Shown here: positions 19-23,403 of the stretch, piece after piece
Layout: every line of letters begins with the position of its first letter
How positions within the stretch are numbered: the stretch's first letter is position 1
DNA from: Candidozyma auris
Lineage: Eukaryota > Ascomycota > Pichiomycetes > Serinales > Metschnikowiaceae
Direction of reading: 5' to 3'
Assembly: GCF_003013715.1 (NCBI RefSeq)
Contig: NC_072815.1
Span: 1-64,000, forward strand
DNA: 64,000 nucleotides
The notes under the pieces: model-generated
The model's input: only the letters and a program-made list of their open reading frames with translations
What the model was told of the DNA's origin: nothing
Databases searched by the model: none
Program-made: the position numbers and the translations under genes

Positions 19-305
19 CCAGACACCACCTAAGAAACAGACACCTAAACAGACACCACCTAAACCCAGACACCACCTAAGAAAACCCAGACACCACCTA
101 AAAAACCCAGACACCACCTAAGAAACCCAGACACCACCTAAGAAAACCCAGACACCACCTAAAGAAAACCCAGACACCACCTAAGAAACCCAGACACCAC
201 CTAAGAAAACCCAGACACCACCTAAGAAACCCAGACACCACCTAAGAAAACCCAGACACCACCTAAAAAACCCAGACACCACCTAAAAAACCCAGACACC
301 ACCTA
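19..305 (+). repeat. Telomeric repeat array, C-rich strand
   Basis: About 15 tandem copies of a 20-22 bp unit, AGACACCACCTAAGAAACCC, varying mainly in the length of the A and C runs. Two outer copies are shortened. Read on the minus strand, each unit contains GGTGTCTGGGT, which fits the budding-yeast Rap1 consensus (RRTGTNTGGGT). The C-rich strand on + is the orientation expected at a left chromosome end. A minisatellite is the alternative, but the adapter outside it and the Rap1-like core favour a telomere. Confidence 0.85.
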
Positions 306-420
306 GAAATCTGACGATGGAAGAGTCACAGTGTACTCTTCCATCGTCAGAGTAAAGCGTAGTGGTTGTTTGAGCAATTGCTGGTGCAGCCAAGGCAAGA
401 AGAATTGTGAAGGGCAACAT
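283..420 (-). pseudogene. Truncated secreted-protein gene capped by telomere
   Basis: On the minus strand an ATG at 420-418 opens a 45-codon frame starting MLPFTILLALAAPAIAQ, a typical signal peptide with cleavage likely after AIA. The mature part begins QTTTTLYSDDGR. After about 30 codons the frame enters a fold-back inverted repeat, then telomeric repeat, and stops at 283. Only the N-terminus of the ancestral gene remains. The Thr-rich start is common in fungal cell-wall proteins, so a subtelomeric adhesin or wall protein is plausible, but too little is left to name the family. A TATA-like element lies about 40 bp upstream. Confidence 0.7.
310..351. repeat. Perfect 17-bp inverted repeat, fold-back junction
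   Basis: Arms 310-326 and 335-351 are exact reverse complements around the 8-bp spacer CACAGTGT. The right arm belongs to the truncated secreted-protein gene. The left arm is an inverted copy of it, and telomeric repeat begins within a few bases. This is the expected footprint of a broken end that folded back, was extended, and was then capped by telomere addition. Confidence 0.85.
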
Positions 421-461
421 CTTGTAGATACTTGACTCGTACTTTAACTTTCACTGGCCCC

Positions 462-471
462 GTTATATATC
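462..471 (-). promoter_or_regulatory. TATA-like element of the truncated gene
   Basis: GATATATAAC on the minus strand, about 40 bp upstream of the ATG at 420. No other promoter element was evident. It suggests that the promoter survived the loss of the gene body. Confidence 0.4.
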
Positions 472-1464
472 ATCGTGTGAGGGATCGGTGGGGAGTGGTG
501 CCCATGGTTGTGTGTCTGACAATACGTTTTTGAGGAGGCTCGCAACGCCCTAGGTACTCACTAAAGCTGACCTCGAATGGTCTTCAGGGGCGGTGATCTT
601 TTTAGGCAGCCGTTGGGGACTCCATCAAGAAAGCCACCGAGGCGGAATTTGTACCCTTTTCGGGGTGATACTACATGGGCTCAGGGAGCCCCATCGCGCC
701 GGAAAGCCGACAAGGCATTGTGGAGTTGACTTGGTTGCTACGAGAATATGAAGTCCAGAAATCCCACTGGCTGTCTCTGACATCTTTGACATCTTCTAAA
801 GAAAACGACTCGATCAAAGGGTAGTGGGCTCGTCGTCTAAGCCCCACAAAACTTCCATGACACAAAAATAACCATCACCAAATGAAGTGTCGGCACAGCT
901 CGAGGTCACTAAGGCCAAGGCCAGGCTGTTGCTACGCCTTGCTATGTCTTGCTACGCCCTGCTACGCCTTGCTCTGACATCTCACAAGGTGAAACGGTAG
1001 CAATGTGGTCGGGGCTCTGTGGGCCTTGTGAGGGTAGTGTGGGGATTGGGTGGCCTCCTATTCGCAATGTGGACAACCCATTGTTAATCGACGATTTTTG
1101 GGGCTAAAGTAGGCGATTTATCTTCAATAGCAGCTTTTGGTGTGATTCGCAATCAAGCACATTTAATTGGGCAGATGTCAGTGATGTTGGTTGCAAAAAA
1201 GCTTGGTAGCTGGTGAAATGCTGAGCGCATCGTGACGCACGGCGGTGCGCGCATGCCCCAGGGCTGCGTTGCAAATCTCACCAACCAATTACACGAACAG
1301 GAGGGTTGCCCAGGAAGGTAAAGTAATTACAGGCATTGCGCAAATGGCTTTAGACGTGAAGAAGATGTGAATTTTGTGAATTACAACAGTTTTATAAATG
1401 GCAGGAAAACTAGAACGAATAAGCTCGTCGCTCAAGTGTGAGCAGGGACACGCACCTAGCACGT
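472..1464. other. Intergenic, no gene seen
   Basis: This is the stretch between the capped gene and the GPI-protein gene. Short open frames exist but none has a recognisable domain or signal sequence. The only structure noted is the short tandem repeat at 931-980. Confidence 0.6.
931..980 (+). repeat. Short 10-bp tandem repeat
   Basis: Five imperfect 10-bp units of the type GCTACGCCTT follow one another directly. They are non-coding as far as can be seen, and no function is suggested. Confidence 0.7.
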
Positions 1465-2139
1465 CTAGAAAAGACCGGCGACGAGAAGAGCAGCACCAGC
1501 AGCAGCACCGTAGGCGCCAGCAGTGACAGCGTCGTTGGAGGCAGTACGAGTGGAAACCGAGGCTGAACCGGAAGCTGAACCAGAAGCTGAGCCCGAAGCT
1601 GAACTCGAAGCTGAGCTCGAAGCTGAGTTAGAGGCAGAGCCAGAGGTTGTAGCGGAACCTGAGCCGGAAGCTGAAGCAGATCCTGAGGCTGAAGCAGAGC
1701 CAGAGGTTGTAACAGGAGCTGAGGAAGAAGCAGAACCGGCAGAATTGCTAGCAGCGTGGGAGTGGCCGTCGTGGCTCTCAGAGCCATGGTCGTGGTCATG
1801 GTCGTGGTCGTGGTCGTGGTCGTGAGAAGCAGACGCCGAGGCGCCAGAAGCAGTGGTGGTGGCCAGGCCGTGGTCGTGGCCACCATGGCCACCGTGGCCG
1901 CCATCCTCCTTGACGAACTCAGCTTCCTCCTGACCGTTCATGCAGAACGTGTTGCTGCCATGAAGATGGCAACCAGTGTAAGTGGAAGGAGCATTGGCAG
2001 TGGCAGTTGGACCTGGAGTCACGTAACCTTCATTTCCCTCCTCATCGATACAGAATTGAGTGGCACCGTGGAAGTGGCAGCCTGTGATGGAGGCAGCGAC
2101 AGAAAGACCCGAGAAGAGCAAGGCAGACTTGAACAACAT
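1465..2139 (-). CDS. GPI-anchored His-rich surface protein with CHxHG repeats
   Basis: This 224-residue protein starts at the ATG at 2139, because the upstream extension lacks a signal peptide and crosses promoter sequence. Residues 1-16 are a signal peptide (MLFKSALLFSGLSVAA). Two modules of the form TGCHxHGxxxFC follow, the first continuing into a GNEGYVTP-type stretch. Next come a GGHGGHGGHDHG segment and an alternating His-Asp run (HDHDHDHDHDHDH), then a long Ser/Ala/Gly/Thr-rich stalk. The end (ASNDA, then about 20 hydrophobic residues) fits a GPI-anchor signal. His/Asp runs and Cys-His modules suggest surface metal binding, most likely zinc. The neighbouring divergent gene is a ZIP zinc transporter carrying the same module. 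The zinc role is inferred. The domain layout is directly visible. Confidence 0.85.
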   Translation of the reverse strand: MLFKSALLFSGLSVAASITGCHFHGATQFCIDEEGNEGYVTPGPTATANAPSTYTGCHLHGSNTFCMNGQEEAEFVKEDGGHGGHGGHDHGLATTTASGASASASHDHDHDHDHDHDHGSESHDGHSHAASNSAGSASSSAPVTTSGSASASGSASASGSGSATTSGSASNSASSSASSSASGSASGSASGSASVSTRTASNDAVTAGAYGAAAGAALLVAGLF

Positions 2140-2913
2140 AGCGAGTGGGGGGTTAAGCTTGCGGTAAGTTGAAAGTTTGTGAAAAAGAAAATTTTTGAAA
2201 AAAAAATGCACCCTTAGCGTGGTATTTAAGTCGAAACGGCAGCCTTGGAGGCATTTGCCCAATTGGGCACGGGGCCGCCCAGTGGCTAATCCCACATTAC
2301 GACGGTACAATGGCTTTTTCCCAAGCGAACAATTATGACCACCACGGTACCTCGATTCCATGTCGTACGGCCATGCTGGTGCATAGTGGAAAGAGCATTT
2401 TTTGACTGGTTTTATGCCTAGGCGAGACGAATTGACGCATCACGATGCATGGTTCTATATGGGTGGGTATTCGCACGTGCCTGTATGCAGGCACTCGTTC
2501 AAATCTTTCCCTCGCAGTCCCCTACCTTTTTTTTTAGCCGTGCCACTTCTGCAAAGAAACCGACACGTTAGATCTGTGATCCTTCTGCGCATATTCATGC
2601 ACTTGAATACTTGCCAAGTTCTTCTTCAAAAGAGGTCATCTCAAAAAAGATACCTCTCCTCTCTTTTTCTCTCCGCAACCACTATACAAGGTACCTCTGC
2701 AAATCCCCCTCTGTCCTTGTGCGGCGCAAATGTTGTCATATTGTCTTCGGTCTTGGCAAAGTCTTCTTTCCTGAGTCAAAAAAACACCGCTGTGGTTGCA
2801 AAAAAGTCTTGGCATGGTTATGATGGGACACCTTAAAGGAGCATCGAATTGGTTGCAATTTTTTTTCACTTCCCCATCGACTCCCACTTTTTCTCTTCAA
2901 GACTCCTTCAACG
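2140..2913. promoter_or_regulatory. Shared divergent promoter of the surface protein and ZIP gene
   Basis: These 774 bp separate the two divergent start codons. They contain a strong zinc-element match at 2830-2840, a weaker one at 2242-2252 (GCCTTGGAGGC), and a perfect 12-bp palindrome GCCCAATTGGGC at 2257-2268. The arrangement allows joint control of both genes. Confidence 0.6.
2830..2840. promoter_or_regulatory. Candidate Zap1-type zinc-responsive element
   Basis: ACCTTAAAGGA matches the yeast zinc-responsive element ACCTTNAAGGT at all specified positions but the last. It lies 73 bp upstream of the ZIP start codon, a typical activating position. It is supported by the identity of the downstream gene, but binding is not shown. 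Confidence 0.6.
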
Positions 2914-4512
2914 ATGCAGTGGAAGTCCTTGTACACTTTGGCGTCGCTTTTGGCAGCTGTTTCTGCCGCCGACATCACCGGCTGCCACTACCACGGAGCT
3001 ACGCAGTTCTGTATCGATGAAGATGGGAACGAGGGATATGTCACTCCAGCGCCTTCTCAGACGGCCGATGCGCCTAGCTCGTACACTGGATGTCATCTTC
3101 ACGGTTCAGAGACTTTCTGTTTAAACGGTCAAAACGAGGCTCAGTTTGTGGTTGAGACTGCCCAGGCGACTTCTGGTAGCGCTTCTGCGTCAATCACCAG
3201 TGCCACCGCCAGCTCCAGCTCTGTGGCTGCTCAGACCACCGCTGTCACGGGCTGCCATAACCACGGCTCTAATCTTTTCTGCATTGATGGAAATGGCAAC
3301 GAAGGTCAGATCACGCCTGCTCCATCGGGAACTGCCGCTCCTGAGAGCTTCACCGGCTGCCACAACCACGGTACCGAAACATTTTGTTTGGATGAGGCTG
3401 GACTGGAAGTTCAATTTGTTAACGAGGAAGATGTGGGTTCTCACGACCCTGCCGACGTGGACAACCCGGAAATGGACTGCCACTACCACGCTGGTGTTCC
3501 TCACTGTATTCCCAAGGAGGAAGTGACACGTTTGGTGCTCAGGCTCAGTCTTGTGACCGTAACGAGGCCGAATACAAGATCCCATTGAGAATCGGTCTTC
3601 TTTTCGCCATTCTTGCCACCGACTGCATTGGTGTGTTTCTCCCTTCTTCGTCCACAGATTCTTCAACAGCCACATGGATGGTGTCATTGTCACTTTGTTC
3701 AAGCAGTTTGGTACTGGTGTTATTCTTTCCACCGCTCTTGTTCATTTGATGACCCACGCCATGTTGATGTGGAACAACTCGTGTATCACTTTGAAATACG
3801 AGTCCACTGCCACATCTATCACCATGGCGGGCCTTTTCATCGGTTTCCTCATTGAGTACTTGATGTCGAGAATCTTGAACAGCAGAGTCGAGAAACTCAA
3901 GAGTGCTGCAGGTGCCCAAGTTAGCTCTGAAGAGGAGGGCAGATCGTCGGAAGATGAGAAAGTTGCTCGTGAAAACAATGGTCACGAGCACACTAGCCAC
4001 GACCACCATGACCTTGACATTGCTGCCAAACAGGATAAGACTGCCGTGTCTCTTTTGGAAGCTGGTATTGTTTCCATTCCGTTCTTATTGGTATCACTTT
4101 AGTTGTCACCCCTGACAAGGACGGTGCTCATCACATTATTTATCGTTATCATCTTCCACCAAGCTTTTGAGGGTGTTGCTTTGGGTACCAGAATCGCTGA
4201 GTTGCAGAAGGTCAACATATGGATTAAGATTTTGATGGGTTTGATATTTGCCATCACTACTCCTCTTGGTATGGCCATCGGTACTGGTGTGTTGCAAAAT
4301 TCAATGGTAATGACCCAAGCACCATCATTGCCTTGGGAACCTTGGACTCCTTCTCTGCTGGTATTCTCTTGTGGGTTGGTCTCATTGAGATGTTGTCTCA
4401 TGACTGGCTCCATGGTAGCCTTGTTCGTGCCTCCTGGCTCAAGGTGGCCATCGGCCTCTTTGGCTTGGTTGCTGGTATGATCTTGATGAGTTTCATCGGT
4501 AAATGGGCATAG
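2914..4512 (+). pseudogene. ZIP zinc transporter with CHxHG ectodomain, frameshifted
   Basis: The reading frame starts with signal peptide MQWKSLYTLASLLAAVSA. Four TGCHxHGxxxFC modules follow, then a fifth variant (DCHYHAGVPHC). After it comes a complete ZIP-family membrane domain: first helix near 3580, a His-rich loop (HEHTSHDHHD) near 3980, the core FHQAFEGVALGTRIAEL near 4155, and a C-terminal FIGKWA ending at TAG 4510-4512. The domain is spread over all three frames, with breaks near 3523, 3632, 4073, 4125 and 4303. Four behave as single-base losses, mostly in or next to short homopolymers. The protein would import zinc at the plasma membrane. Either this is a decaying gene, or the breaks are uncorrected long-read indels. 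The dense conservation between breaks makes the second a real possibility. Confidence 0.85.
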
Positions 4513-5526
4513 TCTTGCTGTGAGATTGCTACTCAAGACTCAAACTTAATTCATTTTAATCATTAGACTCGCATGAAGAAGCAACCAATTCGTTTATGTT
4601 GCCCGAGGCGTTGTCTCATCAAAAAAAATATAACATTTCATATCCTTCAAAAGGTATATGCTTTCATTCAATAATCTAATAGATTTAGTTTCGAGAAAAC
4701 ACCCTTATCGAGTATGTATTTACGTGGGTCTTTCAAGACGTATCAGGTCATTAATAATTCGAAAGTCAACATTCTGTTAGTAATTTCATCACATTTCAAG
4801 CCACATCCCATTTGGAAGTGTACGCACGGATATCTACAAAATTTGAAGCTGGCATCATTATTGGTCGAATCCTATGCTGTAAGGGCGAATACGAAAAATT
4901 GGATACGAGTTCAAACAGCTCTTGTTGTGACGCATCTATTCTGATACGATGACTAGTATTTCAAAAAGAATGAAGATTACATTTCATTTGAGGATCTTGC
5001 AATTGCGTATTTGTGTAGCGTTCAGCAGCTGACTCTGGCGGCATTTGCCTGAGATCTTGGATGACTAACCTGTCTCAGCCTAATTTGTGTATATGGATTA
5101 CCTGAAGCGTAGAGTCCTGGAAGGAAAGTAGACATCATTCAATTACCCGCATGTACTGTCTCTCCCATACTATTGTTACGAGACCTATTTTGGGGTGGCA
5201 GGGGGGTTTGCGGACCGAAGACATTGCCCAAGAGTGATCCACCACACCGCTACCATCAGAGCCACATACACCTCCAATAACTTAAAATCGGAACATATAT
5301 CATGACTGAGCTGTTCAGTTGGAAATTAAAACCTTTTTCGATTTTTTGGTGTCACTTAAGCAAATGCATTTTGTTTCAAGATGGCCAAATTACGAAATAA
5401 TTGCGGCGGTTATAAATGATTCGCAACTTCTTAGCACCCTTTGATGGTATTGATATAAATCATTTCATATAAATGTACTGTCAAATCATCAAATCTGATC
5501 ACAACATTTGCCGAGAGGCGAGTGGT
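4513..5526. other. Intergenic, possible relic at 5030-5290
   Basis: There is no intact gene. On the minus strand from about 5290 to 5030, reading-frame pieces with coding-like character (for example GPQTPLPPQNRSRNNSMGE) are interrupted by stops and frame changes. They could be the tail of a dead gene, but no family is recognised. The rest is AT-rich. Confidence 0.35.
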
Positions 5527-7450
5527 CTACTCTCCAACATTGAGGAAGATCTTCTTCCAATTTCGTTTGCTTCCTTTCTCTCCAAGTAAACTATCCTTGA
5601 TTCTTTGCTCCTCAACTGGAATCATGTTGCCATTCTCATCCTCGACAGCATTGTTTGTATCACCAAGATAATAGTTTCTCTGGAAGTACACTGCAGCAAG
5701 ACGAATGGCTTGCAAAGAGAGGGCAACAGGGTAAAAGTAGAAATTCACTTCCCTGTATGCTCTGGTGCCACCTTGTCTTATTTCACTGTTGTAATCATAC
5801 TTATGAAGATTGCTGATGTTGCTGAAAAAGCTTTTGACCTGCTCATTTGATACAGTCGCTGGTAAATGTTTCCTCAAAGCTGCTTCCATTTTGCCTTGCC
5901 ACATGGCGGTGGATATTGCTGAGCCAATAGAAGAGCCAATGGATGACGACAAACTCAAAATAGAGATGGACACCGCCATATCTCTATGAGGAATGGAAGC
6001 TTGTAGCGCAACACTTGACGCCGGGACACTGAAGCCGCCGCCCATACCAGAGAGTAACCGCGACCATACCAATCTGACAGTGCTATCACTAGCAGTTCGA
6101 CCATCAATCATGATGCCCGCTCCCACTATAGCCAAGAAGATACCAAAGTATTGGTACACCTTGAAACTGTGGATTAAACGCATGAAGATACCTGAGACAA
6201 CGCCAAAAACGCACAATGCCATAGTCAATGTATTGTTGAAATAGGTCCACTGTTTATTAGACCAGTCTTTGACAATCCATACAAAGGATGAAGTGTAGAC
6301 AGATGGAATGCCTCCAGCTAATTGGTAAACGAAGTCAATTATAAGGGATGCCACAAGAGTACGGTTCAAACATCTTTTGGGAAGGATAGGGAATGGTGCG
6401 TAGTACCACTCATGGATGAAAAAGAATACGAGGAGAAGTCCTCCAACGACAAACATTGCAATCAAACTTGAATTTTTCCATTGGTAGTCAGCATTTTTGT
6501 ACAAAGAAAATGGCAACAAAAGCAAAGCAAATGCAAATCCCAAGAGAAGTAACCCCAATGCATCCACTTCAACCATCAATCTCCAAATGAGCTTCTTCCA
6601 ATTCTTTTTAAAGCCCAAATTCTCATTGTAATCAATGAGCTCCTGATTTTGTAGCTGTTTGTGGGCTTTCCTTTCATAAACGAACATGATAATCGTGGCC
6701 GGAGAAAACGGGCATTATGATACAGAACATACCATAACCCCATCTCCAACCACCAGGACCCAAATCCAGAACAATATAGCCAGCATACCAAGTGTTAATT
6801 ATGTAAGGTGTACTCAAAGCCGAAGTAGCAAGAGCTCTCCATTTCAAGTTCGTCATATCAGCAACAACAATTCGGTTGAGAAACGTTACACCCGCATCAC
6901 CCGTTGCAGCAAAGGCAGATCCCACAATATAGGCTGATATAGTACTACTTGAAGCCACAATCACGTATCCGAGGACGTAAAAAATCGTTGATATCAAGTA
7001 TGTCGATGGTCTTGAGACGATGTTCGCTATCCTCGCCCACACTGGCTTTGAGATGGCGCTAATTAGCTGGGTTGCAATCCCAAGGGCACCAAGGCCCATA
7101 GAGTGCTGATTAAAAGCAGAAGTAGCCCAAGGCTCGAGGTTGGTCGTCACAGACCAATCCAACGAAGAGGCCCAGGCACACAAAAGAACGGAAATACCCA
7201 AAATAAATCTCATTTGGAGACCCTTTTTGTGAGAGTACAAAGCATCTCTGACTGCCTCCACTCGATAAACTCCTCTATCTTTAATTATCTCAGCGTCGGC
7301 ATCAACACGAGCAGGAACAGGTCTGTCGTCAGGGGACCTTTCACTAACCTCACGTCCTTCAAAAAACTCAGCACTTTTCTCGCAAGCATCACTGGAGAAT
7401 TCGTTGCAGATAGAAGTATCAGTCACGTTTTTCCTGGTATCCTTTGACAT
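5527..7450 (-). pseudogene. Siderophore-iron transporter (ARN/SIT1 type), one frameshift
   Basis: Two overlapping frames, 7450-6674 and 6687-5527, together encode about 640 residues, the usual ARN/SIT1 length. The product is a major-facilitator protein with about 14 membrane helices, which would take up iron-siderophore complexes by proton symport. Family features include the first-helix region VLLCAWASSLDW, the segment NTWYAGYIV before the break, a Gly-rich LLSGMGGGFSVPASSVALQ stretch, and the near-terminal FQRNYYLGDT followed by an acidic tail. The break lies at about 6697-6709 and is repaired in concept by one extra base in a C/T run. This is either a recent null allele or an assembly indel. 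It lies close to the zinc pair, in the same metal-uptake segment. Substrate specificity cannot be read from the sequence. Confidence 0.85.
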
Positions 7451-22600: not shown

Positions 22601-22602
22601 AC

Positions 22603-22775
22603 CAGACACCACCTAAGAAACCCAGACACCACCTAAGAAACCCAGACACCACCTAAGAAACCCAGACACCACCTAAAAACCCAGACACCACCTAAGAAAA
22701 ACCACCTAAGAAACCAAGACACCACCTAAGAAAACCCAGACACCACCTTAAAAAACCCAGACACCACCTAAGAAA
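22603..22775 (+). repeat. Interstitial telomeric repeat array
   Basis: About nine copies of the same unit as at the contig end (AGACACCACCTAAGAAACCC and variants), in the same orientation, with one copy truncated. Lying 22.6 kb inside, it marks a former chromosome end, a telomere-seeded repair event, or an assembly join. Confidence 0.9.
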
Positions 22776-23403
22776 CTGCTTTTTCCTACCTTCCGCCTGT
22801 GATGAAAATCAATCCAGCGACTGTTAAATCAAGAGTGCGGTCGAGGTTTGCCGAAAAAAGTTGATCCAAAAACGTGGTGTCGGCGCCGTCTTCGGTTTTG
22901 CACCGCTCATTTTGAGATATAGAGCCAGATACTTGGTTGGCTTCAACGTCTGGATCATCAACCGACGCGTAATTCTAAATCCCAACTCTGTTCTTCATTT
23001 GGGACGTGCTCTGCAAGCTTATATCGATTGGAATTACTATCACTTACATGGCTATCTTCTCTTTTTTGGACTACGACCAAAAAGATCGAAGTCTCAGTGA
23101 AGGAAGCTTCATAGCACGACAAAGCTAGCTTCGAAGGTGCCTGCTCTTCTACTAAACCGGCCAAGAATGGTGGATGTTATATGAGAGATTATGGCCATCA
23201 TTGCGACAGGGAGTGAAGCACAGCGCTCAACTCCAACAGTACCTTGTTTATAGTCCAGGAATCTGACGAAAGATTTGCGTGCACCTACTTTGTGAAGACT
23301 CTCACTTATCATAAGTTTCGGAATCAAATTTACGGGCAAAGCTTAGTAAAGGCGAAGTTGTACATTGCTCTATGGCTATCATAAACGTACACAATAAATA
23401 AAA
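22776..23403. other. Intergenic, no gene seen
   Basis: This 0.6-kb stretch lies between the interstitial array and the end of the MFS gene. Its short frames have no recognisable content. Confidence 0.6.

What the first reader, a model, noticed from the sequence alone, without database searches (positions are those of the whole stretch)
1465..4512. Divergent zinc-scavenging pair sharing a CHxHG module, an unrecognised parallel to PRA1-ZRT1
A GPI-anchored surface protein and a ZIP transporter are transcribed from one promoter. Both carry TGCHxHGxxxFC modules (two and about five copies), and the first modules are nearly identical to each other. The surface protein adds long His-Asp and GGH runs. 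The layout copies the logic of PRA1-ZRT1 in Candida albicans and aspf2-zrfC in Aspergillus, where a secreted zinc binder is encoded next to a zinc importer. Here the binder is anchored and from a different family, and it shares its binding module with the transporter's ectodomain. This could be a surface relay passing zinc from the wall protein to the transporter.
Basis: partly seen in the sequence, partly recalled or inferred. Interest (0 to 1): 0.88.

Follow-up and report, generated by a model that had tools for sequence, protein, structure and literature searches.

The report
Wall-anchored copy of zinc-importer ectodomain
In this yeast, apparently Candida auris, the gene next to the ZRT1-type zinc importer is not the usual secreted zinc scavenger but a predicted wall-anchored, histidine-rich protein built from the importer's own outer domain, which suggests an undescribed way of holding zinc at the cell surface.

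Summary
The pair is real. The importer (+, 2914-4512) is the ZRT1/ZrfC orthologue itself, not a parallel to it. Its divergent neighbour (-, 1465-2139) is a predicted GPI wall protein made of the same ~63-residue CHxHG unit as the ZRT1 ectodomain, plus GGH and His-Asp runs. The unit is old: the 120 listed Zrt1-type ZIPs all carry it (A. fumigatus included), and AlphaFold2 folds it confidently. The wall protein is thus a detached, anchored ectodomain. PRA1 is present on another chromosome, so the slot beside ZRT1 has changed occupant. A Zap1-type site lies in the shared promoter; the pattern also occurs twice upstream of ZRT2, not upstream of PRA1. ZRT1's first unit groups with the wall protein's unit rather than with ZRT1 orthologues, implying past exchange. 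The window's ZIP frame is broken, but its coding region differs from the second copy by indels alone, and a 99%-identical intact protein is public. Zinc binding and hand-over are inferred. Verdict: a new variant of the zincophore locus; the relay is plausible and untested.

The parts
1465..2139 (-). Predicted GPI-anchored wall protein, 224 aa: hydrophobic N-terminus, one CHxHG double unit, GGH run, His-Asp run, Ser/Ala-rich stalk, hydrophobic tail. Start set at 2139 (the ORF runs to 2361).
   Evidence: homologues; no Pfam family
1903..2085 (-). CHxHG double unit of the wall protein (61 aa; modules at 2050-2079 and 1942-1971)
1876..1902 (-). GGHGGHGGH run
1786..1824 (-). HDHDHDHDHDHDH run
2140..2913 (.). 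Shared intergenic region between the two start codons (774 bp)
2338..2348 (-). Zap1-type site ACCGTGGTGGT (C. albicans Zap1 motif 1 is ACCTTGGTGGTTA); also in the C2 copy at C2:3187
2914..4512 (+). ZRT1/ZrfC-type ZIP zinc transporter gene; frame open in this copy only to residue 224
2977..3165 (+). ZIP ectodomain unit 1 (79% identical to the wall protein's unit)
3247..3432 (+). ZIP ectodomain unit 2 (68-84% identical to unit 2 of the four nearest ZIPs)
3478..3507 (+). Membrane-proximal CHYHAGVPHC, counterpart of C. albicans Zrt1 CHFHAGVEHC
3632..4497 (+). ZIP domain (PF02535) in pieces
322..5167 (.). Segment repeated in the opposite orientation at the end of C2 (C2:379-5214), 98.5% identical by blastn; holds both genes
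20..309 (.). Telomere-type repeat array (about 20-bp unit) at the contig end

Best explanation
The locus is the ZRT1 half of the known fungal zincophore locus with a new partner. ZRT1 is a plasma-membrane ZIP whose extracellular N-terminus carries two folded CHxHG double units and a membrane-proximal CHxHAGVxHC motif. The divergent neighbour is a predicted GPI-anchored wall protein made of the same unit at its exposed tip, a His-rich middle and a Ser/Ala stalk: in effect a detached ZRT1 ectodomain fixed in the wall. Most likely both are induced together by zinc starvation through a Zap1-type site in the shared promoter; the wall protein captures or concentrates zinc in the wall and so supplies the like-built ectodomain of ZRT1. 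Secreted Pra1 is still encoded on another chromosome. Shown here: identity of ZRT1, shared unit, apparent linkage in three relatives, presence and unlinked place of PRA1, position of the motif. Inferred: GPI anchoring, zinc induction, zinc binding by the wall protein, transfer to ZRT1.
For: ZRT1 identity: 523 homologues (120 listed), including named Candida ZRT1s and an A. fumigatus protein, with CHxH[A/G/S]GVxHC in 120 of 120 listed. Shared unit: its HMM scores over 40 bits in 120 of 120 listed ZIPs, 92 of them not used to build it; it also covers the window's wall protein and the 12 wall homologues, but those were used to build it. Independently, a profile of six wall proteins finds ZIPs as 7 of its 19 hits. 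Linkage: wall homologue and ZIP have the same longest contig in three cases, 54784 (P0005/P0012), 29620 (P0129/P0018) and 34565 (P0136/P0115). PRA1 on C1, none of nine ZIP matches on C1. Motif: of 32 genome sites of ACCNTGGTGGT, two are the two copies of this promoter and two lie within 600 bp upstream of ZRT2; one further site is 304 bp upstream of a CobW-type GTPase. Zinc binding by kindred motifs: peptide sites of C. albicans Zrt1 and Pra1 and of Aspf2 bind Zn(II) (PMC9780748, passages). The N-terminus of ZrfC is said to underlie its role in virulence (PMC4343018, passages). The unit is a confidently predicted fold, block pLDDT 88-94.
Against: No zinc-binding, expression or localisation data for the wall protein were found. 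In the predicted hairpins the two Cys of a module lie on consecutive strands and may form a disulfide, leaving two His per module as ligands. The motif is not enriched genome-wide (32 sites; reversed control 74); PRA1, the second ZRT2 and the ZRT3-like gene lack it upstream; and at eight other sites outside long ORFs the scanned neighbours were mostly of no evident zinc role (DUF846, proteasome, 2-hydroxyacid dehydrogenase, subtilase, four proteins without a family; one alcohol-dehydrogenase type). The S. cerevisiae-type element is at chance level (139 sites against 156 in the control). With Pra1 still encoded, a second scavenger is not obviously needed.
Confidence: 0.55

Rival explanations
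1. Pra1 docking: the wall protein displays the ectodomain units with which Zrt1 holds secreted Pra1, so it is an extra wall-borne receptor (or decoy) that keeps Pra1 at the surface rather than a zinc carrier of its own.
For: In C. albicans Zrt1 is essential for soluble Pra1 to bind the cell surface (PMC3386192, passages including the abstract). PRA1 is present here. The unit is a folded domain, as a docking module would be. ZRT1 unit 1 groups with the wall unit (99/93) and its placement with other ZRT1 first units is rejected (AU p 0.002 and 0.004), as if the two must stay alike.
Against: Which part of Zrt1 binds Pra1 was not found in the passages read. The long His-Asp and GGH runs are better explained by metal binding. 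Unit exchange between neighbouring repeats can be neutral recombination.
Confidence: 0.15
2. Zinc buffer or sink: the wall protein stores or excludes zinc or other metals (protection, wall stiffening, metal-dependent cell-cell contact) and hands nothing to ZRT1.
For: GGH and His-Asp runs are generic metal binders (recalled); 18 His in 224 residues, 15-27 in the 12 homologues.
Against: Linkage to the importer, the promoter site shared with ZRT2 and the ectodomain unit point to uptake.
Confidence: 0.2
3. Wall protein without a zinc role: the pair is a chance neighbourhood, and the unit serves as a stable disulfide-rich beta domain at the tip of a GPI stalk.
For: The two Cys of each module sit on consecutive strands in the model; weak resemblance to thyroglobulin type-1 (16.8 bits, under the 20.6 cut-off).
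Against: Apparent linkage in three relatives whose ZIPs are 47-62% identical to the C. auris one, and 15-27 His in each of the 12 homologues.
Confidence: 0.07
4. Decaying subtelomeric pair: the frame breaks in this genome are real and the locus is being lost in this strain.
For: ZIP frame broken in C4; wall gene and the first part of the ZIP broken in C2; C. auris Clade II is known for subtelomeric loss (PMC8128392, passages).
Against: The copies differ in the ZIP coding region by 7 gaps and 0 mismatches, a pattern of consensus error; an intact ZIP with 26 member sequences is public.
Confidence: 0.08

Closest known systems
PRA1-ZRT1 (ZRT101) of Candida albicans
   Same: The transporter is the orthologue; divergent layout on one intergenic region; a zinc-regulator motif in that region; a metal-binding surface or secreted partner.
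   Different: The partner here is a predicted GPI wall protein built from the ZRT1 ectodomain unit, not the HRXXH protein; PRA1 is on another chromosome.
aspf2-zrfC of Aspergillus fumigatus
   Same: The A. fumigatus homologue found here (P0122) has three CHxHG modules plus CHFHAGVEHC in its ectodomain, the same architecture.
   Different: Aspf2 is a soluble Pra1-family protein; no anchored ectodomain copy beside zrfC is reported in the passages read.
ZRT1 and PRA1 of C. auris B8441 (B9J08_000003, B9J08_002992)
   Same: Probably the same genes; the tag numbers also place them far apart, and tag 000002 is listed as a SIT1-type gene on chromosome 2.
   Different: The listing (PMC13028451, Table 2, passages) names the genes only; the wall partner is not mentioned in the passages read.

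Membership tests
Zrt1/ZrfC-type ZIP (fungal zincophore-locus cluster) | ZIP domain with eight TM helices | tested here: met
   PF02535 in the window copy and the C2 copy; eight helices and BbZIP-like fold in the model of the 99%-identical public protein
Zrt1/ZrfC-type ZIP (fungal zincophore-locus cluster) | Long extracellular N-terminus with CHxHG modules and CHxHAGVxHC | tested here: met
Zrt1/ZrfC-type ZIP (fungal zincophore-locus cluster) | Nearest named homologues are ZRT1/ZrfC proteins | tested here: met
   (names as given by the sources); no separate tree of whole ZIPs was built
Zrt1/ZrfC-type ZIP (fungal zincophore-locus cluster) | Gene adjacent to PRA1 (usual but not universal) | tested here: not met
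   PRA1 on C1, none of nine ZIP matches on C1
Zrt1/ZrfC-type ZIP (fungal zincophore-locus cluster) | Induced by zinc limitation via Zap1 | tested here: inconclusive
   Zap1-type site in the promoter; no expression data
Zrt1/ZrfC-type ZIP (fungal zincophore-locus cluster) | Transports zinc | not testable with these tools
   -
Pra1/Aspf2 zincophore family (for the wall protein) | HRXXH domain (PF13933) | tested here: not met
   0 Pfam families for the wall protein; the genome's only PF13933 match is on C1
Pra1/Aspf2 zincophore family (for the wall protein) | Secreted and soluble | tested here: inconclusive
   hydrophobic C-terminal tail and Ser/Ala stalk suggest anchoring; no GPI predictor
Pra1/Aspf2 zincophore family (for the wall protein) | C-terminal CHTHxxGxxHC | tested here: not met
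   absent from the 224-aa sequence; present in PRA1 of this genome
GPI-anchored fungal wall protein | Signal peptide, Ser/Thr-rich stalk, small-residue omega region and hydrophobic tail | tested here: inconclusive
   features seen in the wall protein; the C-terminal tails of the 12 homologues look hydrophobic; no predictor or experiment

The most novel reading that the evidence does not exclude
A fungal importer has shed a wall-anchored copy of its own zinc-binding ectodomain, and recombination keeps the transporter's and the wall protein's units matched, so that zinc (or zinc-loaded Pra1) is passed along a ladder of like domains from wall to membrane.
Probability: 0.25. Interest if true: 0.82.

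Novelty: new variant of a known kind. Interest (0 to 1): 0.62.

Why it matters
PRA1-ZRT1 is the best-known fungal zincophore locus, and how Pra1 passes zinc to its transporter is still open (PMC12663325, passages). A relative in which the transporter's neighbour is an anchored copy of the transporter's own ectodomain gives a natural experiment: it isolates the ectodomain unit as a free-standing domain and asks directly whether it binds zinc, binds Pra1, or both. It concerns, in all likelihood, Candida auris, called a WHO critical-priority fungal pathogen (abstract start of PMC12717273 in the listing). The CHxHG unit is a folded domain for which no Pfam model passed its cut-off in the two window proteins and no solved structure matched by sequence.

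Tried and rejected
Independent parallel to PRA1-ZRT1: rejected, the ZIP is ZRT1 itself. PRA1 absent: rejected. S. cerevisiae-type zinc element ACCTTNAAGG: 75+64 sites against 75+81 in the reversed control; one lies in this promoter at 2830, none of the other places that were listed is at a zinc importer, and only part of the places was listed; dropped. Unit in PRA1 or in the neighbouring Ser-rich GPI-like gene of C2: not found (1.8 bits and no hit). Other CHxHG-unit genes in this genome: none beyond the two copies of the pair (7 matches, all at C4:1903-3426 or C2:2130-3621). Recent gene conversion between the two genes: not supported, third codon positions agree in only 22 of 48 conserved codons. 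Exchange in the reverse direction (ZIP unit 1 into the wall protein of the haemulonii-like group): in the tree (97/97), but site counts are even (8 against 7 for P0005, 6 against 7 for P0002, 9 against 7 for P0128), so not claimed. Wall-protein model: poor (mean pLDDT 48). Beta-propeller-like Foldseek hits to the model: weak and of poor fit (E 0.008 or worse, rmsd about 15 or more), not used. Solved structures by sequence: 0 for the ZIP and 0 for the unit.

Not in print, as far as searched: none of the ten library searches listed a paper whose title or abstract start describes a wall partner beside ZRT1; some lists were cut, the library lacks most subscription papers, and of 14 papers opened I saw passages only (one section whole in one of them).
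Full report
What is there. The window is the start of contig C4 of a 12.25-Mb, seven-contig genome. A telomere-type repeat also lies inside the window at 22602-22776. This matches the internal telomeric array reported 22.7 kb from the end of chromosome 4 of Candida auris B11220, Clade II (PMC8128392, section 13 read), so the genome is very probably that strain or a close one. Two divergent genes share 774 bp: a 224-aa protein on the minus strand (1465-2139) and a ZIP transporter on the plus strand (2914-4512).

The ZIP is ZRT1. Its domain is Pfam Zip. The open frame of the second copy (P0001) finds 523 homologues among 8000 scored candidates, 120 of them listed; named ones include ZRT1 of C. 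metapsilosis, C. oxycetoniae, C. theae and others, and an A. fumigatus protein at 43%. All 120 listed carry the membrane-proximal CHxH[A/G/S]GVxHC, and 109 of 120 a strict CHxHG..FC module. The A. fumigatus protein has three such modules plus CHFHAGVEHC, which fits the 'four putative zinc-binding motifs' of the ZrfC N-terminus (PMC4343018, passages); that these are the same four is my inference. In C. albicans the region with CHFHAGVEHC is named the most probable Zrt1 zinc site, and the Pra1 and Aspf2 C-terminal peptides bind Zn(II) (PMC9780748, passages). C. auris B8441 ZRT1 is listed as B9J08_000003 and PRA1 as B9J08_002992 (PMC13028451, passages).

The wall protein is the ZRT1 ectodomain set free. 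The modules come in pairs that form a unit of about 63 residues. An HMM of the unit scores over 40 bits in 120 of 120 listed ZIPs, 92 of which were not used to build it. It also covers the window's wall protein and 12 of 12 non-ZIP homologues found by two searches, but those went into building it; the independent link is that a profile of six wall proteins returns ZIPs as 7 of its 19 hits, and the direct identity of the window's two first units, 79%. A 13th, weaker non-ZIP hit from Cercospora (26.7 bits) was left out of the trees. ZIPs have one to four units, wall proteins one or two. AlphaFold2 on the 99%-identical public ZIP with 71 relatives predicts each unit as a six-stranded beta domain (block pLDDT 88-94) ahead of eight helices that match BbZIP (E 2.9e-5). 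The wall protein's own model is poor (48) apart from its first hairpins (76-77). The 12 homologues hold 15-27 His each and end in tails that look hydrophobic.

Linkage and the place of PRA1. In three cases a wall homologue and a ZIP share the same longest-contig length: P0005/P0012 at 54784, P0129/P0018 at 29620, P0136/P0115 at 34565. I take these to be single contigs; distance and orientation are unknown. For the other 9 of 12 wall homologues no match was listed, but only 120 of 523 ZIPs were shown, and two of the nine lie on contigs of about 1.5-1.6 kb. The genome has one PRA1 (PF13933, E 1.7e-95) on C1, whose frame holds an HRLWH core and ends in CHTHADGEVHCE; none of the nine ZIP matches lies on C1. 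Loss of PRA1-ZRT1 adjacency is known in some CUG-clade yeasts (PMC3386192, passages). What is new here is what stands in PRA1's place.

Regulation. C. albicans Zap1 motif 1 is ACCTTGGTGGTTA (PMC2688839, passages). ACCNTGGTGGT occurs 32 times in this genome (reversed control 74), so it is not enriched overall. Two of the 32 are the two copies of this promoter; two lie upstream of ZRT2, at C2:1597431 and 1597770 with the start codon at 1598015. By my arithmetic, about 0.002 sites are expected in any given 600 bp. I chose the pattern after seeing the site in this promoter, so the ZRT2 pair is the independent part. Thirty of the 32 sites were fetched; eight others lie outside ORFs of 150 aa or more. 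Of the ten nearby ORFs scanned at those eight, one is a CobW-type GTPase (site 304 bp upstream), one an alcohol-dehydrogenase type, four are other families and four have none; that CobW proteins include zinc chaperones under Zap1 control is recalled, not tested. PRA1, the second ZRT2 and the ZRT3-like gene have no such site upstream. In C. auris, PRA1, ZRT1, ZRT2 and ZRT3 are repressed by caspofungin (PMC8244764, passages); the wall gene is not named in the passages seen.

Exchange between the neighbours. ZRT1 unit 1 of C. auris is 79% identical to its own wall unit but only 52-61% to unit 1 of the four nearest ZIPs, although the part from the membrane-proximal motif on is 66-76% and unit 2 is 68-84% identical. 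In 36 control comparisons among the nine other ZIPs, unit 1 minus the rest ranges from -10 to +13; the nine comparisons with C. auris range from -23 to -4, so the ranges overlap but all nine are negative. In a 39-unit tree the wall unit and ZRT1 unit 1 are sisters (99/93), and forcing ZRT1 unit 1 together with the other first units is rejected (AU p 0.002 and 0.004), as is one clade of all wall units (0.006). In a larger tree of 82 units the same sister pair has less support (94/90, not starred). Site counts agree: 14 positions match the wall unit alone against 6 matching relatives' first units alone; for unit 2 it is 1 against 22. The groups were named after seeing the data, the alignment has 64 columns, and codon identity is low (71.7% nucleotide), so the event is old.

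The broken frame and the double copy. Window 322-5167 reappears reversed at the C2 end. C4 reads telomere, wall gene, ZRT1, MFS gene; C2 reads telomere, ZRT1, wall gene, another GPI-like gene. In B8441, tag 000002 is listed as a SIT1-type gene on chromosome 2 (PMC12717273, passage), so the native order is probably SIT1-ZRT1-wall gene on chromosome 2. Over the whole segment blastn counts 8 mismatches and 51 gap openings, and a global alignment 33 mismatches and 43 gaps; in the ZIP coding region there are 7 gaps and 0 mismatches, in the wall coding region 5 gaps and 2 mismatches. The ZIP is broken in C4; in C2 the wall gene and the first part of the ZIP are broken. This is what unpolished duplicated ends would look like.

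Judgement. The gene identities are firm, the detached-ectodomain origin is strong, zinc co-regulation is likely, and a relay to ZRT1 is one of several open functions. This is a variant of a known locus, not a new kind of system.

Noticed in passing
22602-22776: Internal telomere-type repeat array; the outer 22.6 kb looks added outside an old chromosome-4 end (reported for C. auris B11220, PMC8128392).
   Followed up: partly
322-5167; L009:379-5214: The duplicated segment is oriented oppositely to the telomere on C4 and C2 and ends near a telomere array in each, as if one chromosome end had been copied and both pieces capped; the C4 break falls inside a second GPI-like gene whose 5' end remains at about 310-425.
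   Followed up: partly
5527-7450: MFS transporter gene (perhaps the SIT1-type neighbour of ZRT1) is split into two overlapping ORFs; possibly another consensus error or a real break.
   Followed up: no
window:2914-3585, residues 114-136: Weak thyroglobulin type-1 resemblance of the CHxHG unit (16.8 bits, under the 20.6 cut-off); one Zasmidium ZIP (P0112) carries that Pfam label.
   Followed up: no
L009:5114-5722: Ser/Ala-rich GPI-like protein next to the pair on C2, without CHxHG units.
   Followed up: no
L052:1815-3011: CobW-type GTPase gene with a Zap1-type site 304 bp upstream; a candidate zinc-regulated metallochaperone.
   Followed up: no
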